NCBI GenBank assembly: GCA_017398045.1
Contig: JAFQHI010000009.1
Location: forward strand, 186,001 to 250,000
Reading direction: 5' to 3'
From: Alistipes sp.
GTDB lineage: Bacteria; Bacteroidota; Bacteroidia; Bacteroidales; Rikenellaceae
DNA: 64,000 nt
Position 1 is the first letter of the stretch, and every line of letters starts with the position of its first letter. Shown here one piece after another: positions 3,225-60,206 of this stretch. A program made the position numbers and the translations under genes. The notes below the pieces were generated by a model. That model did no database searches, was not told where the DNA came from, and worked only from the letters and a program-made list of their open reading frames with translations.

Positions 3225-3556
3225 AGAGGAAAGAGCAAAGAGGAGAGAGGAAAAGATATAAAGATATTAAAGGGATTAAAGGGATTAAAGAGATTAAAGA
3301 TTTTAATGAGAGCCTGTCCTTAATCTCATTAATCTCATTAATCTCTTTAATTTCATTAATATCCTTTAGCTCCCTTTAGCCCCCTTAAGCTCCCTTATGC
3401 AACCTTAAGCCCCCTTAAGCAACCTTTAGCTCCCTTAAGCCCCCTTTAGCTCCCATAAGCAACCTTAAGCCCCCTTAAGCCCCCTTAAGCCCCCTTAAGG
3501 CACCTTAAGGCACCTTATAAAACTTTCTCGCCCTTTTCGCCTTTTCGCCTTTCGTT
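3225..3556. repeat. Composite intergenic repeat element 1 (purine arm, 9-bp repeats, sixteen 10-bp CTTAAG repeats)
   Basis: The gap of about 490 bases between two leftward genes is almost wholly low-complexity repeat. In order: a purine arm (3225-3255, AGAGGAAAGAGCAAAGAGG type); 9-bp units GATTAAAGG facing inverted units ATTAATCTC (3256-3360), which can fold on each other; sixteen 10-bp units with consensus CCCCTTAAGC in strict register at 3361-3520; and TCGCCCTTTTCGCC-type units (3523-3556). No gene is seen inside. Confidence 0.9.
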
Positions 3557-3577
3557 CTGTCTCGGTATAAAAAAGCA

Positions 3578-4835: not shown

Positions 4836-4979
4836 AGAGCGAAGAGCAAAGACCTGAAGGATAATAACGAAATTAAGGAGATTAAGGAAGCCTTTAATCT
4901 CCTTAAAATCTTTAATTTCTTTAATCTCTTTTTAATCTCTTTCCTCTTCGCTCTTCGCTCTTCGCTCTTTGCTCTTTCG
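4820..4979. repeat. Composite intergenic repeat element 2 (inverted purine/pyrimidine arms)
   Basis: Left arm (4820-4852) is AAGAGGAAAGAGTAAAGAGC-like; right arm (4938-4979) is its inverted counterpart, CCTCTTCGCTCTTCGCTC-like. Between them lie a hairpin of GATTAAGG units and further TTAATCTCT units. The element overlaps the 3' ends of both convergent genes and encodes the last residues of each. Confidence 0.85.
4873..4906. terminator. Convergent terminator hairpin inside element 2
   Basis: TTAAGGAGATTAAGG pairs with CCTTTAATCTCCTTAA around a 3-nt loop with one bulge. It lies between thioredoxin and rlmN and could stop transcription from both sides. Confidence 0.55.
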
Positions 4980-12858: not shown

Positions 12859-13926
12859 ATGGGGGAGCTGTCCCTGCGCCGACGCTTGGCACTCGAACTT
12901 TGGCGGATCGAGGAGCGTAGAGTGGCGCGCGAACATCCCCTCCGCCAACTCTTTTGGGAGTGTACGCTGCGCTGCAACCTCCATTGTCGCCACTGCGGTA
13001 GCGACTGTAAGCAGGAGGCTGCCCGGCCGGATATGCCCCTCGCGGACTTCCTTGGCGTGTTGGACAACATCGCCTCCCACACCGATCCCCACAAGGTTTT
13101 TGTCATCATCACGGGTGGTGAGCCGTTGATGCGCCCTGACCTGGAGGCGTGTGGCCGTGCCATCTACGAGAAGGGCTTCCCGTGGGGCATGGTGACCAAC
13201 GGCCTGGCGATGACCGAGGCGCGTTTTCGCCGACTCCTGGCCGCCGGCATGCACTCGGCTACGGTGAGCCTCGACGGCCTGGAGGAGGATCACAACTTTA
13301 TGCGCGGGCATGGGCGTAGCTTTGAGCGTGCTGTGGCTGCGATTCGCATGATGGCGCAAACACCCGATTTCCTCTTTGATGTGGTGACCTGTTGCAACCG
13401 CCGTAACATCGATCGGCTGGATGAGGTCAAGGAGCTTTTGATCGGCCTCGGTGTGAAGCGTTGGCGAATCTTCACGGTCTTCCCCGTGGGGCGTGCGGCG
13501 CAAGATCCCGCGTTGCAACTCACCAACGAGGAGTTCCGCCGTTTGATGGAGTATATCAAGCAGACGCGCGAGGAGGGTCGTATCCGTGTTGATTATGGAT
13601 GTGAAGGCTTCCTGGGACGTTACGAAGGGGAGGTGCGCAACCGCTTCTACGGCTGTCGGGCAGGTATCTCGGTAGGGTCGGTGCTGGCCGATGGCTCGAT
13701 TTCGGCTTGCGCCAGCATTCGCGCCGACTACCACCAGGGCAATATCTACAAGGACGACTTTTGGGAGGTATGGCAGACACGCTTCGAGAAGTTCCGCAAC
13801 CGCGCGTGGATGCGCACGGGCCAATGTGCCGACTGCTCCTTCTTCCGCTACTGTCAGGGCAACGGTATGCACCTGCGCGATGGTGACGGGAGGTTGCTCC
13901 TCTGCCACCTCGAAAGGCTGAAATAA
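12859..13926 (+). CDS. Radical SAM/SPASM enzyme of the rSAM/lipoprotein system
   Basis: A 355-residue cytoplasmic enzyme. The SAM cluster motif is C39-NLH-C43-RH-C46 within FWECTLRCNLHCRHCGSDC, with extra Cys35 and Cys50; GGEP is at 86-89. The C-terminal SPASM region has Cys266, Cys284, Cys323, Cys326, Cys332 and Cys349 (GQCADCSFFRYC), which would bind one or two auxiliary clusters. The FWECTLRCNLHCRHC block fits the TIGR04133-type family named for its lipoprotein neighbour. Start is ATG at 12859, immediately after the lipoprotein stop and with AAGGAG just upstream. The reaction is not known. Confidence 0.85.
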   Translation: MGELSLRRRLALELWRIEERRVAREHPLRQLFWECTLRCNLHCRHCGSDCKQEAARPDMPLADFLGVLDNIASHTDPHKVFVIITGGEPLMRPDLEACGRAIYEKGFPWGMVTNGLAMTEARFRRLLAAGMHSATVSLDGLEEDHNFMRGHGRSFERAVAAIRMMAQTPDFLFDVVTCCNRRNIDRLDEVKELLIGLGVKRWRIFTVFPVGRAAQDPALQLTNEEFRRLMEYIKQTREEGRIRVDYGCEGFLGRYEGEVRNRFYGCRAGISVGSVLADGSISACASIRADYHQGNIYKDDFWEVWQTRFEKFRNRAWMRTGQCADCSFFRYCQGNGMHLRDGDGRLLLCHLERLK

Positions 13927-13944
13927 AAAAGCGGAAAGAGCGAA

Positions 13945-14032
13945 GAGATAACTTTGCGATTAAGGCGAGCGCACACGCTTGCGTGATGCCGAGCCGGAGC
14001 AAAGTCAAGCCACCGAAGGTGGGTTAAAGAGC
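13945..14032 (+). repeat. 88-bp structured repeat, copy A
   Basis: Identical to 38771-38858 except for one base (C/G after GGCGAG). It contains possible stems ACTTTGC/GCAAAGT, CACG-CTTG-CGTG and CCACC-GAA-GGTGG (14010-14022). A degenerate inverted fragment is at 60163-60200. Confidence 0.9.
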
Positions 14033-14066: not shown

Positions 14067-14110
14067 AAAAGAGCGTCATCCTTCGCCAAAGGCTCAGGAT
14101 GACGCTCTTC
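14067..14110. terminator. Bidirectional terminator between radical SAM and DUF3467 genes
   Basis: A perfect 12-bp stem, GAGCGTCATCCT (14071-14082) with AGGATGACGCTC (14096-14107), flanked by AAAA on the left and TTCGTT on the right. Confidence 0.75.
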
Positions 14111-14197
14111 GTTAATCTCGTTAAACTCCTTAAAATCTTTAATCTCTTTATCTTATCTCTCCTCTTCGCTCTTTCCTCTTTCCTCTCTCCTCTTTGT

Positions 14198-18212: not shown

Positions 18213-18333
18213 AATTCAAAATTAAGAATTAAGAATTAAGAATGGAGGGGTAGGAAGCCTCGTTAATTTCGTTAATTTCGTTAATTTCGTTAATTTCGTT
18301 AATTTCGTTAATATCTTTAATCTCGTTAATATC
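18186..18333. repeat. Composite intergenic repeat element 4 (AT-rich block and eight 9-bp units)
   Basis: An AT-rich block of AATTCAAAATTTAGAATT type (18186-18243) overlaps the end of ispH. It is followed by eight 9-bp units in register at 18262-18333: five perfect GTTAATTTC, then GTTAATATC, TTTAATCTC and GTTAATATC. The array ends 12 nt before the next ATG. Confidence 0.9.
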
Positions 18334-18345
18334 ATTTCCGAAATC

Positions 18346-18825
18346 ATGAAATACCTGGTTCGTTCGCTGAAATATTTTGTCGCTTTATGCGTTCTATGTG
18401 TGGTACTGATGGGGCTGATGCTCCTGACCGGCACGTCGCAACTGACGGCCGAGGAGACCCTCTACCTGATGTTCCACTCCGACCGCTTCCTGCTGCTCGG
18501 CATCGCGATTGTCGTATTGGCCGCCACCTACCCCCGCTTCGGCTTTATCCGTAAGCGTGTGGAGGGTGACATGGAGCAACATCGCACGCAAATCGAGAAT
18601 GCCTTCCGCGGAGCCGGATTCCGCCTCGTAAAGGAGGAGGATGGCGTGCTTTACTTCCGTGGCGACGGCTTTTTCAAACGCCTCACGCTCCTCTTCGAGG
18701 ACGAAATTTGCGTGTCGCAATACGGGCAGTGGATTGAGTTGGAGGGTATCCGACGCGGTGTCGTGCGGGCATGGTATCTGCTCGATTCGTACCTTGAAAT
18801 GGTCAAACGAGATGAGAAAAAGTAG
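18346..18825 (+). CDS. Hypothetical protein with two membrane helices
   Basis: A 159-residue protein, family not recognised. Two N-terminal membrane segments (YFVALCVLCVVLMGLMLL and FLLLGIAIVVLAATY) are followed by a basic stretch and a mixed alpha/beta soluble domain (AFRGAGFRLVKEEDGVLYFR ... ICVSQYGQWIELEGI). The gene overlaps the protease gene by 14 nt, so coupling is likely. The 9-bp tandem array lies where its translation initiation region should be. Confidence 0.65.
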   Translation: MKYLVRSLKYFVALCVLCVVLMGLMLLTGTSQLTAEETLYLMFHSDRFLLLGIAIVVLAATYPRFGFIRKRVEGDMEQHRTQIENAFRGAGFRLVKEEDGVLYFRGDGFFKRLTLLFEDEICVSQYGQWIELEGIRRGVVRAWYLLDSYLEMVKRDEKK

Positions 18826-37463: not shown

Positions 37464-38753
37464 ATGAATTACACCCAAACACTCGAATTTCTGTTCCAAC
37501 AACTCCCGGCCTTTGAGCAGAAGGGGGTATCGGCCTACAAGCCGGGCTTGGAACGTATCAGCGAGTTTTGCCGTGTGCTGGGCAATCCGCAACGCAACTT
37601 TTTCACGATTCATGTGGCCGGCACGAACGGCAAAGGGTCGGTGTCGCACCTCCTGGCTTCGATTTTGGAGCAGGCGGGCTATCGCACCGGACTCTTCACC
37701 TCGCCCCACCTGCAAGACTTCCGCGAACGTATCCGCGTTGATGGCGAGATGATTCCGAAGCAGAAGGTGGTCAATTTCGTCGATAAGCACCGCGAAAAGA
37801 TGTGCGAGCTGAAGCTCTCCTTCTTCGAAATGACCGCAGCCCTGGCTTTCGACTACTTCGCCCAAAGCGACGTGGAGGTGGCCGTGATTGAGACCGGTCT
37901 CGGAGGTCGTCTCGATGCCACGAACGTGATTCTTCCGGTGGTGAGCATCATCACCAACATCGGACTGGAGCATACCGCCCTGCTGGGTGACACGCTTCCG
38001 AAGATTGCCGCCGAGAAGGGAGGCATCATCAAGAAGAGTATTCCGGTTGTGGTGGGCGAAAAGGATGACCGCTGGAGCGAGGTGATTGAGGAGATAGCCA
38101 CGCGAAATCGTTCGCGCGTGATTTATGCCGAGCAGGAGTTCCTCTGCGAGGAGCAGCACGACGAGGAGGGCGCACAACGCCTTTCGTTGCGTCGCCTGCG
38201 CGATAAGTATCTCTACGACGTACAACTCGACCTGATGGGTCACTACCAGCGCAAGAATGTCGTGACGGCTGCCGCAGTGGCGGACTACCTCCACGAATCG
38301 ACCCCGCTGACCATCTCGCGTCGCGCCTTTATCGAGGGGTTGCGCACCGCCTCGAAGGAGACCTCGCTGATGGGTCGCTGGCAAAAGCTGGGTGAGAATC
38401 CGCTGATCATTTGCGACACGGGCCACAACGCCCACGGCATTCGCTACGTGAGCGAACAGATTGCCGCCACGCCCCACGAAAAGCTCTACTGCGTAGTGGG
38501 TTTTGTGAAGGATAAGGACCTGGAGCATATCCTGCCCCTGTTGCCGAAAGAGGCGCACTACCTCTTCACGGCCGCCCAAACCGAGCGTGCCGTACCGGCC
38601 GCAGAGCTTTGCCAAAAAGCGGCCTCGTTCGGCCTTCAGGGTGAGGTGGTCGAGGATGTCAAGGAGGCGGTGAAACGCGCCTGCGAGTTGGCCTCTGCTG
38701 AAGACCTGATTTTCATCGGCGGCAGCACCTATGTCGTCGGCGAAGCGATGTAA
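37464..38753 (+). CDS. folC: Folylpolyglutamate synthase / dihydrofolate synthase
   Basis: Adds glutamate to dihydropteroate and folates. The 429-residue protein has the Mur-ligase-like P-loop HVAGTNGKGSVSHLL, FTSPHLQDFRERIRVDG, ETGLGGRLDATNVI and ICDTGHNAHG. The ATG before NYTQTLEF lies 20 nt after lnt. The gene ends in composite element 5. Confidence 0.96.
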   Translation: MNYTQTLEFLFQQLPAFEQKGVSAYKPGLERISEFCRVLGNPQRNFFTIHVAGTNGKGSVSHLLASILEQAGYRTGLFTSPHLQDFRERIRVDGEMIPKQKVVNFVDKHREKMCELKLSFFEMTAALAFDYFAQSDVEVAVIETGLGGRLDATNVILPVVSIITNIGLEHTALLGDTLPKIAAEKGGIIKKSIPVVVGEKDDRWSEVIEEIATRNRSRVIYAEQEFLCEEQHDEEGAQRLSLRRLRDKYLYDVQLDLMGHYQRKNVVTAAAVADYLHESTPLTISRRAFIEGLRTASKETSLMGRWQKLGENPLIICDTGHNAHGIRYVSEQIAATPHEKLYCVVGFVKDKDLEHILPLLPKEAHYLFTAAQTERAVPAAELCQKAASFGLQGEVVEDVKEAVKRACELASAEDLIFIGGSTYVVGEAM

Positions 38754-38756
38754 TAA

Positions 38757-38972
38757 GAGCAAAGAGGCAAGAGATAACTTTGCGATTAAGGCGAGGGCAC
38801 ACGCTTGCGTGATGCCGAGCCGGAGCAAAGTCAAGCCACCGAAGGTGGGTTAAAGAGCAAAGAGCAAAGAGAGTTGAAAGTTGAGAGTTAAAACCCTTAG
38901 TCACCTTTAGCCTCCTTTAGTTTCCTTTCTCGCCCTTCTCGCCTTTCACGCCCTTCTCGCCCTTCTTGTAAG
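38757..38972. repeat. Composite intergenic repeat element 5 with an 88-bp unit
   Basis: Between convergent folC and lrp. Order: purine arm, 88-bp unit (38771-38858), second purine arm (AAAGAGCAAAGAGCAAAGAG), CCTTTAGC-type 10-bp units (about 38892-38925) and TCGCCCTTC-type units (about 38926-38966). Confidence 0.88.
38771..38858 (+). repeat. 88-bp structured repeat, copy B
   Basis: One base different from 13945-14032 over 88 bp. The CCACC-GAA-GGTGG hairpin is at 38836-38848. Both copies lie just after a rightward gene and in the same orientation to it. Confidence 0.9.
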
Positions 38973-38979
38973 CCCTAAC

Positions 38980-39020
38980 AAAAGAGCCTGTCTAACAAGA
39001 TTAGACAGGCTCTTTTCTTT
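38980..39020. terminator. Bidirectional terminator between folC and lrp
   Basis: AAAAGAGCCTGTCTAA pairs perfectly with TTAGACAGGCTCTTTT around CAAGA. Confidence 0.9.
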
Positions 39021-39036
39021 ATCAGCAACAGACGAT

Positions 39037-39537
39037 TTACCGTTTCTTGGTCGGCAGGTCGTCGATAAACTCCACAGCCAGCGGACGACGGAAAACCTCG
39101 CGCAGCGAAATGATGGTCTCCGTGGCCGAGATACCGGGGATGCACAGCACCTTGTCATAGACCGTGTGCATCAGATGCTCGTTATCGAGGCAATAGAGTT
39201 TGACCTGGATACTGCCCTTACCGGTGATGAAGTGAGCCTCCACGATTTCGGGAATCTCCTGCAACTCGTCAATCACCTGCTGCAACTGCTGCGGGTCCTT
39301 GAGCGAAATGTTGATATGGGCGCAGACATCGAAGCCCAACATCTTGGGATTCACCACCATATAGCTACCCTGAATCACACCGGCCTCGGTGAGTTTGTGA
39401 ATACGCTGGTGGATGGCGGCACCCGAAATACCACACTCGCGGGCAATCTCCAGGAAGGGCATACGGGCATTCTTCACCAAGTACTTCAGAATTTTGCGAT
39501 CAATCGCGTCCAAGCTAATTGTCTTCATAGGTTTCAT
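39037..39537 (-). CDS. Lrp/AsnC-family regulator
   Basis: A 166-residue DNA-binding protein with an N-terminal winged helix (SLDAIDRKILKYLVKNARMP, then HQRIHKLTEAGVIQG) and a C-terminal RAM domain that binds amino acids (HFITGKGSIQVKLYCLDNEH). It is read after kbl, 33 nt downstream of it, so a glycine/threonine-related control of kbl is plausible. Start could be this ATG or one three codons later. Confidence 0.92.
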   Translation of the reverse strand: MKPMKTISLDAIDRKILKYLVKNARMPFLEIARECGISGAAIHQRIHKLTEAGVIQGSYMVVNPKMLGFDVCAHINISLKDPQQLQQVIDELQEIPEIVEAHFITGKGSIQVKLYCLDNEHLMHTVYDKVLCIPGISATETIISLREVFRRPLAVEFIDDLPTKKR

Positions 39538-42449: not shown

Positions 42450-42548
42450 AATTATTTAGTTTTTAAGGTTTTACTTTTGTTTTCTCATTTCTTGCGCTAC
42501 CGGTTTTGCGTTCAATGGGTTAGACTGCAAAGTGTGAAAAAGGTTACA

Positions 42549-42693
42549 AAAAAGAGGAAAAAGCCAAGAGCGAAGAGGAAAGAGTTGAAAGGCGCGAAGG
42601 GCGATAAGGGCAATTAAAGGCAGCTAAAGGAAATCCCTTAAGTAACCTTAAGCACCCTTAAGGAACTTTAAGAAACCTTTTCCTCTTTCCTCT
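42549..42693. repeat. Composite intergenic repeat element 7
   Basis: Purine arm, GAAAGGCGCGAAGGGCGATAAGG units, AATTAAAGG and CAGCTAAAGG units, then CCCTTAAG 10-bp units and an inverted pyrimidine arm. Nearly the same sequence recurs at 43603-43740. It overlaps the last codon of the 110-residue protein. Confidence 0.88.
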
Positions 42694-43586: not shown

Positions 43587-43594
43587 CAAAAATA
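43587..43594 (-). promoter_or_regulatory. Predicted -7 box of the ECF sigma gene
   Basis: Minus strand TATTTTTG, exact TAnnTTTG, 35 nt before the ATG. The -33 region would lie in repeat element 8. Confidence 0.45.
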
Positions 43595-43602
43595 GTAAAA
43601 AT

Positions 43603-43799
43603 AAAGAGGAAAGAGCAAAGAGCGAAGAGGAAAGTGCTGAAAGGCGCGAAGGGTGATAAGGGCGATAAGGGCAATTAAAGGAAAATCCCTTAAGTAACCT
43701 TAAGCACCCTTAAGGCACTTTAAGAAACCTTTTCCTCTTCGCTCTTTGCTCTTTCCTCTTTGCTCTTTGCTCTTTGCTCTCTCCTCTTTCCTCTTTCTT
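43603..43799. repeat. Composite intergenic repeat element 8
   Basis: Fills the divergent gap of about 390 bases between the sigma gene and rplY. It repeats element 7 with one extra GATAAGGGC unit and without the CAGCTAAAGG unit, and has a longer pyrimidine arm (CCTCTTTGCTCTTTGCTC type, 43734-43799). No gene is seen in the gap apart from the rplY leader. Confidence 0.88.
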
Positions 43800-43820
43800 A
43801 CTCATTCTTTATCAAATAAT

Positions 43821-60030: not shown

Positions 60031-60206
60031 AAATTCAAAATTTAGCATTCAAAATTCAAAATTAGGGGGGCTAAGGGGAGTTAAGGGTTGCTAAAGGAAA
60101 CTAAAGGCAGCTCAAGTTTTTCAACTCTCTTTCCTCTTCGCTCTTCGCTCTTTGCTCTTTCCTCTTTAACCTGCCTTCGGCAGCTTGACTTTGCTCTTTC
60201 CTCTTA
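60031..60206. repeat. Composite intergenic repeat element 10, inside the division/wall cluster
   Basis: Separates murE from mraY on the same strand. Order on the plus strand: AT-rich block (60031-60064), GGCTAAGGGGAGTTAAGGG-type units (60065-60118), pyrimidine arm (60126-60166), then an inverted fragment of the 88-bp unit and another pyrimidine stretch. Confidence 0.85.
60163..60200 (-). repeat. Degenerate inverted fragment of the 88-bp repeat, copy C
   Basis: On the minus strand this matches the last third of the 88-bp unit (AGCAAAGTCAAGC ... GGTTAAAGAG). The hairpin is CTGCC-GAA-GGCAG (60171-60183) instead of CCACC-GAA-GGTGG: two base pairs are swapped on both sides, so pairing is kept. 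Confidence 0.8.

What the first reader, a model, noticed from the sequence alone, without database searches (positions are those of the whole stretch)
13945..14032. 88-bp structured repeat with a covarying hairpin in a third copy
Copies at 13945-14032 and 38771-38858 differ by one base in 88. A third, inverted and partial copy (60163-60200) keeps the hairpin but changes two base pairs on both sides: CCACC-GAA-GGTGG becomes CTGCC-GAA-GGCAG. Compensatory change implies that the fold, in RNA or single-stranded DNA, matters. The unit also has ACTTTGC/GCAAAGT and CACG-CTTG-CGTG pairings, so it may form a small multi-arm structure like a REP/MITE unit or a small RNA.
Basis: seen in the sequence. Interest (0 to 1): 0.75.

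Follow-up and report, generated by a model that had tools for sequence, protein, structure and literature searches.

The report
Folding DNA repeat of gut Bacteroidales
The 88-base repeat belongs to a large family of short DNA elements in gut bacteria whose shape is preserved while the letters change, and which appear to move between genes and, in some relatives, sit right at gene promoters; what moves them is unknown.

Summary
The two 88-nt copies differ at one base, the predicted bulge; the third keeps the hairpin with two compensated pairs. That third copy is a truncated member of a second subfamily, found in full at four other sites.

The genome holds 22 units at 21 intergenic sites plus two partial ones. 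A covariance model finds the family in 149 of 180 genus genomes; a second, partly circular one in 56 of 295 of the order but 2 of 296 across the phylum, own included. Covariation is strong: 20 of 26 pairs change on both sides, 403 cells against 116 in shuffles. No Rfam family matches. Orthologous empty sites show gain or loss of whole units. In three sister genomes 53 of 76 sampled sites begin with a Bacteroidetes -7 promoter box, and 51 of those 53 face a start codon.

Best reading: a non-autonomous, REP-like mobile repeat acting as a folded single strand, mobilised in trans. Pfam Y1_Tnp finds no transposase in this genome, but can miss divergent RAYTs. The mobiliser is unidentified.

The parts
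13945..14032 (+). unit, copy 1 (type A), between a radical-SAM/SPASM gene ending at 13926 (+) and a DUF3467 gene (-)
   Evidence: neighbours
13951..13957 (+). stem P1, 5' strand (ACTTTGC)
   Evidence: RNA fold; pair counts
13999..14005 (+). stem P1, 3' strand (GCAAAGT)
13964..13973 (+). inner stem P2, 5' side GGC-GA-G-(bulge)-GCA; the bulge at 13970 is the only base that differs between copies 1 and 2
13987..13995 (+). inner stem P2, 3' side TGC-C-GA-GCC; with the 5' side gives the tandem C-GA-G
14007..14025 (+). second arm P3: AA-g-CCACC-GAA-GGTGG-g-TT
38771..38858 (+). unit, copy 2 (type A, one difference), between a Mur-ligase-domain (FolC-like, name recalled) gene ending at 38753 (+) and an AsnC/Lrp-type regulator (-)
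60162..60196 (-). truncated unit of type B (part of P1 and the whole second arm), beside the end of a Mur-ligase gene (-)
13926..13947 (+). flanking AAAGAG-type heptads, left of copy 1
60127..60161 (-). heptad array beside the truncated unit

Best explanation
It is a unit of a non-autonomous, dispersed, REP-like repeat family that is concentrated in Bacteroidales. Shown: it is multicopy and intergenic, has a covarying two-arm fold, can stand in tandem arrays, and whole units are present or absent at orthologous sites. Inferred: one strand (the one written here) folds as single-stranded DNA, for instance during replication or recombination, and is the substrate of an enzyme supplied in trans; selection on that substrate keeps the stems, the tandem C-GA-G and the GNA and CTTG/TTTA loops. 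In this genome nearly all units sit in AAAGAG heptad arrays; in a sister group many sit at the -7 promoter box of genes.
For: Covariation: 20 of 26 pairs, 403 two-sided cells against 116.1 in shuffles and at most 91 with slid partners; 14 of 26 on the first alignment. 22 units at 21 sites, 8 identical 85-mers at separate sites. Empty sites: G027 lacks the unit exactly at 13945-14032 and has one on the other side of the same gap and one at the heptads near window 3240, where this genome has none. Unit ends are sharp while neighbouring heptads vary. None of 21, 76 and 114 sites overlaps a called gene by more than 45 nt. Strand: the written strand folds better as DNA than its complement (-18.0 against -13.5 kcal/mol); G.T cells 80 against A.C 32; GNA loops in 75 of 136 resolved second arms against 10% in shuffled tails. 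No sense preference between co-directional genes in own (8 to 5) and A3 (20 to 19) sites.
Against: No mobilising enzyme is identified: Pfam Y1_Tnp 0 in own genome, 1 of 101 in the genus. No target-site duplication is shown: in 43 of 76 sites with anchors the two flanking repeats agree no better within a site than between sites, except at position 4; over all flanks the mean shared string is 4.40 against 3.73 with flanks exchanged. No replication-strand bias in G105 (5 to 7 of 12 listed units, by hand). Orthologous presence/absence can be loss instead of gain. The G.T excess is biased by alignment to an RNA model, and RNA would give it too. One of five units does not prefer the fold as RNA.
Confidence: 0.55

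Rival explanations
1. It is the REP of a RAYT (TnpA_REP). Bacteroidetes subclass 2.6 RAYTs are reported to be flanked by atypical secondary structures with copies elsewhere; this may be that family, with the RAYT lost here or too divergent to see.
For: PMC6006769 (passages and one section). In G401 a RAYT (NCBIfam REP_Tyr_transpos, 66.1 bits, cut-off 80) lies about 920 nt from a unit. Pfam scores that gene only 20.5 bits against a cut-off of 23, so could miss such genes.
Against: Y1_Tnp in 0 of 1 own and 1 of 101 genus genomes, that one IS200-like by eye and without a unit in its 3.4-kb locus. The G401 RAYT has another gene between it and the unit and is the only one in 20 order-level stretches. 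No RAYT motif in 935,217 of 1,883,277 bases of the main contig of G106, which has 48 matches in the genome. No GTAG foot in the consensus.
Confidence: 0.2
2. No transposase is needed: units are copied between heptad arrays by recombination or gene conversion, and the fold is kept for another reason or helps strand exchange.
For: 21 of 22 own units have AAAGAG-type heptads on the left; heptad arrays without a unit exist.
Against: Identity stops at the unit ends while flanking heptads vary; the promoter form in G106, G002 and G047 is not in heptads.
Confidence: 0.13
3. It acts as RNA: a 3'-UTR element, terminator or small RNA.
For: Stable RNA fold in four of five units tested, G.U-type cells in excess. 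Both full window copies lie just after a stop codon in a convergent gap; A3 sites favour convergent over divergent gaps, 34 to 6.
Against: No sense preference in co-directional gaps of own and A3 sites, and in A4 the folded strand is mostly antisense to the gene it precedes (++ 4, -- 24, -+ 38). No Rfam match at gathering score in the window and no match up to E 5 overlapping a unit in six loci.
Confidence: 0.1

Closest known systems
REP/REPIN (BIME) repeats with RAYT/TnpA_REP (PMC2817692, PMC3733652: search listings; PMC6006769: passages and one section)
   Same: short, multicopy, extragenic, folded, lineage-specific, without coding capacity
   Different: two arms and about 73-90 nt, no GTAG foot in the consensus, no Y1_Tnp found in this genome
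Atypical secondary structures beside Bacteroidetes RAYT subclass 2.6 (PMC6006769)
   Same: Bacteroidetes, folded, copies elsewhere in the genome
   Different: sequences are in figures and supplements that I could not see; identity with this family is untested
BrickBuilt MITE of Porphyromonas gingivalis (PMC4596501, passages)
   Same: Bacteroidales, intergenic, tandem repeats inside
   Different: 23-nt minisatellite and terminal inverted repeats like ISPg1/ISPg9; found only in P. gingivalis by its authors
Heptameric short tandem repeats of cyanobacteria and others (recalled; PMC4692102: listing)
   Same: heptad arrays between genes
   Different: heptads here are the setting; the folded unit is separate

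Membership tests
REP/REPIN | many extragenic copies | tested here: met
   22 units at 21 sites; no called gene overlapped by more than 45 nt
REP/REPIN | conserved foldback with compensated pairs | tested here: met
REP/REPIN | GTAG (or similar) tetranucleotide at the foot of a 20-40 nt hairpin | tested here: not met
   consensus and rows have no such foot; the unit is 73-90 nt with two arms
REP/REPIN | cognate RAYT in the genome, flanked by copies | tested here: inconclusive
   negative; power limited; one RAYT near a unit in another genus
MITE | terminal inverted repeats shared with an autonomous IS | tested here: inconclusive
   by eye the ends share only TAAC/GTTA; 960 ORFs beside units, no transposase seen among the 25 largest clusters printed
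MITE | target-site duplication | tested here: inconclusive
   7-mers AAAGNNN on both sides in several lineages, not better matched within than between sites
small RNA | discrete transcript | not testable with these tools
   no expression data; orientation, Rfam
integron attC site | single imperfect hairpin with RYYYAAC/GTTRRRY ends in cassette arrays beside an integrase (recalled) | not tested
   considered by eye only: two arms, mostly dispersed single units

The most novel reading that the evidence does not exclude
A mobile folded element aimed at promoters. One widespread form inserts at the host's -7 box (TAnnTTTG): the first half of its main stem is that box, and its apical hairpin supplies a TTTG at about -33. 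It would recognise its target by base pairing within its own fold and take over the upstream half of the promoter, without a Y1 transposase. The unit in this window would belong to a branch that instead sits in heptad arrays.
Probability: 0.2. Interest if true: 0.88.

Novelty: new variant of a known kind. Interest (0 to 1): 0.62.

Why it matters
Bacteroidales are a main group of gut bacteria (general knowledge), and this family is spread through the intergenic DNA of many of them, in three sister genomes preferentially at start-proximal promoters. If mobile, it is a source of promoter rewiring and tandem-array polymorphism, and it poses a testable question: which enzyme moves a folded strand where no RAYT is seen. 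It also supplies a covariance model for a family for which I found no Rfam match.

Tried and rejected
Mobiliser: Pfam Y1_Tnp gave 0 in own genome and one gene in 101 genomes, with no unit in its locus. A motif scan of all 482 held loci (3,316,850 bases) gave one RAYT, in G401, seen in three overlapping loci, and three phosphofructokinase-like ORFs that match the motif by chance (by eye). Mother element: 960 ORFs from loci around units clustered; the 25 largest clusters, all that I printed, show no transposase by eye. Replication-strand bias: none in G105 (12 listed of 17 matches), GC skew too noisy in G106. Carriage: no match in plasmids for type A; 0 and 1 exact matches in viral contigs; four phage records with partial matches to the promoter form. 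Target duplication: not shown. Gene calls: the longest-ORF calls and a first codon model chose antisense frames in places; their strand counts were dropped and replaced, after retraining and a check. Papers: searches listed nothing that I recognised as this family; open-licence full texts only, two of ten searches unused, no supplements. One search was for the GCGAAGC hairpin.

Left out of counts: identical rows; 33 of 76 sites without an anchor; 148 of 284 second arms and 57 of 284 apexes not resolved; repeated flanks. A1 is 40 units that I picked. Model R2 was built from matches that include 29 order-level loci found with R1, so one search is partly circular. The A4 stretches (31 of G106, 19 of G002, 10 of G047) were picked from the printed part, not from all matches.

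Full report
Observation. The two 88-nt copies differ at position 26 only, which the fold places as a single bulged base. The third copy is identical over 35 nt to a full type-B unit present at four other sites (L009/L017, L012, L013, L015). It begins at GAGCAAAG, a string that also occurs in the flanking heptads (GAGCAAAGAG), so a deletion between these short repeats explains the truncation (inference).

Copies. BLAST in the own genome gives 22 units at 21 sites: 11 of type A, 4 of type B, 2 diverged, and 5 with an extra hairpin module of about 74 nt between GCAA and AGTC; two partial units come on top. An exact 20-nt core pattern gives 98 stretches in genome contigs; the 80 that were listed are all titled Alistipes or Rikenellaceae MAGs except one Bacteroidaceae. 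No call names the organism of the window.

Fold and covariation. Arm 1 has P1, an asymmetric loop GATTAA/GNA, a short stem, tandem C-GA-G, a one-base bulge, GCA/TGC and a variable hairpin; arm 2 (P3) has a three-base loop. On 40 units that I chose from BLAST hits, 14 of 26 pairs change on both sides, 101 cells against 29.7 in shuffles; the measure of further pair types was reached by 86 of 500 shuffles. On 124 matches (107 distinct) it is 20 of 26 pairs and 403 cells against 116.1, with 0 of 500 shuffles reaching any of five measures and at most 91 cells with slid partners. The second alignment is fitted to the model, and relatedness inflates such counts; the slid controls argue against that as the sole cause. 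No Rfam family reaches its gathering score in the window, and none up to E 5 overlaps a unit in six loci.

Strand and molecule. As DNA the written strand folds at -18.0 and its complement at -13.5 kcal/mol; for type B -19.0 and -13.9. In paired cells G.T outnumber A.C, 80 to 32, with a bias toward G.U from the model. GNA loops close 75 of 136 resolved second arms against 10% in shuffled tails; central apexes are mostly C(TT)G (78) and T(TT)A (57) of 227 resolved. GCGAAGC-class DNA mini-hairpins are known as extraordinarily stable (PMC10527192, passages); that GNA loops and tandem G.A favour DNA over RNA is recalled. This fits single-stranded DNA without proving it.

Mobility. Against relative G027 (81-96% identical in the compared flanking genes) the unit at 13945-14032 is absent, while G027 carries a unit on the other side of the same gap and one at the heptads near window 3240. 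The genes on either side of the second window copy are not adjacent in any of the six relatives searched (drafts, two of them with both genes on one contig about 85-100 kb apart). Own units are alike up to their ends, whereas flanking heptads vary. Tandem units occur: G038 with an 88-nt period, G106 and G002 with about 73 nt. Whether differences are gains or losses is not settled.

Distribution. Plain DNA search: 29 of 101 genus genomes. Model R1: 149 of 180 in the genus, 38 of 295 in the order. Model R2, partly circular: 56 of 295 in the order, 37 of 184 genera, and 2 of 296 across the phylum, one being the own genome.

Promoter form. From G106, G002 and G047 I took 60 stretches around printed matches; they give 96 matches at 76 sites. 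At 53 of 76 the left end carries CAAANNTA, the reverse complement of the sigma-ABfr -7 box TAnnTTTG (consensus in PMC7366714, passages); chance is about 5% per 30-nt window. Of these 53, 51 face the start codon of the left gene, against 13 of the other 23. 26 of 53 have CAAA (TTTG on the other strand) 20-23 nt on, 20 of them at exactly 20. For one such gene, 17 of 18 relatives that show no unit upstream have a native TAnnTTTG there (my count by eye), and a nineteenth, G007, carries units. For a second gene the box lies in the last 60 nt upstream in 18 of 30 genomes, the unit-bearing one included, which is weaker. In the own genome 0 of 16 tested sites has the box, and in A3 2 of 114, so this does not describe the window's units directly.

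Orientation. With retrained gene calls no unit overlaps a called gene by more than 45 nt. Left/right neighbour strands in unit orientation: own ++ 8, -- 5, +- 5, -+ 2, incomplete 1 (21 sites); A3 ++ 20, -- 19, +- 34, -+ 6, incomplete 35 (114); A4 -+ 38, -- 24, +- 7, ++ 4, incomplete 3 (76). Co-directional contexts in own and A3 show no clear sense preference; pooled over all three sets ++ 32 and -- 48, p 0.09.

Enzyme. Pfam Y1_Tnp: 0 in the own genome (91.5% complete), 1 of 101 in the genus, IS200-like by eye and without a unit in its locus. A RAYT in G401 lies about 920 nt from a unit with a gene between them; NCBIfam gives it 66.1 bits (cut-off 80) and Pfam 20.5 (cut-off 23). The Pfam negative is therefore weaker than it looks. 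PMC6006769 reports mostly Bacteroidetes RAYTs (subclass 2.6) flanked by atypical structures with copies elsewhere; whether these are this family I could not check.

Verdict. A real, order-wide, structure-conserved dispersed repeat that behaves like a REP but lacks one tested hallmark and leaves another open. The mobile single-strand mechanism is the best reading (0.55); its enzyme and target rule remain open.

Noticed in passing
window 3343-3557, 4881-4977, 14099-14195, 18250-18346, 43721-43803, 60066-60167: Intergenic minisatellites with units of 7 (AAAGAGC type), 9 (TTAATCTCG type) and 10 nt (CCTTAAGCCC type), several in one gap. Heptads differ between lineages (AAAGTTG, AAAGGTG, AAAGCAG) and often flank the unit.
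   Followed up: partly
L443 9740-10402 (-), G401: A RAYT-like gene carrying an internal ELHSPDNSN amino-acid repeat that lowers its Pfam score below the cut-off.
   Followed up: partly
L231, L232, L253: Units appear to lie inside reading frames that look like type I restriction specificity genes (by eye; not tested).
   Followed up: no
L013 and L115: The locus around one type-B unit is 96.3% identical over about 3.1 kb to another MAG (RGIG2949), more than G027 is at most compared loci: horizontal transfer or mis-binning.
   Followed up: no
window 38753-39037: The gap holding the second copy separates genes that are not neighbours in six relatives, so a rearrangement breakpoint coincides with the unit.
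   Followed up: partly
window 42537-42693 and 43589-43745: A 157-nt direct repeat, 85% identical, with heptads.
   Followed up: no
L109, L112, L122, L154 and others of the A3 set: In several MAGs the same core stands inside another dispersed repeat (GTCATTCTGAACG... to ...GAACTCAAGAATC), so the core module occurs in several outer frames.
   Followed up: no
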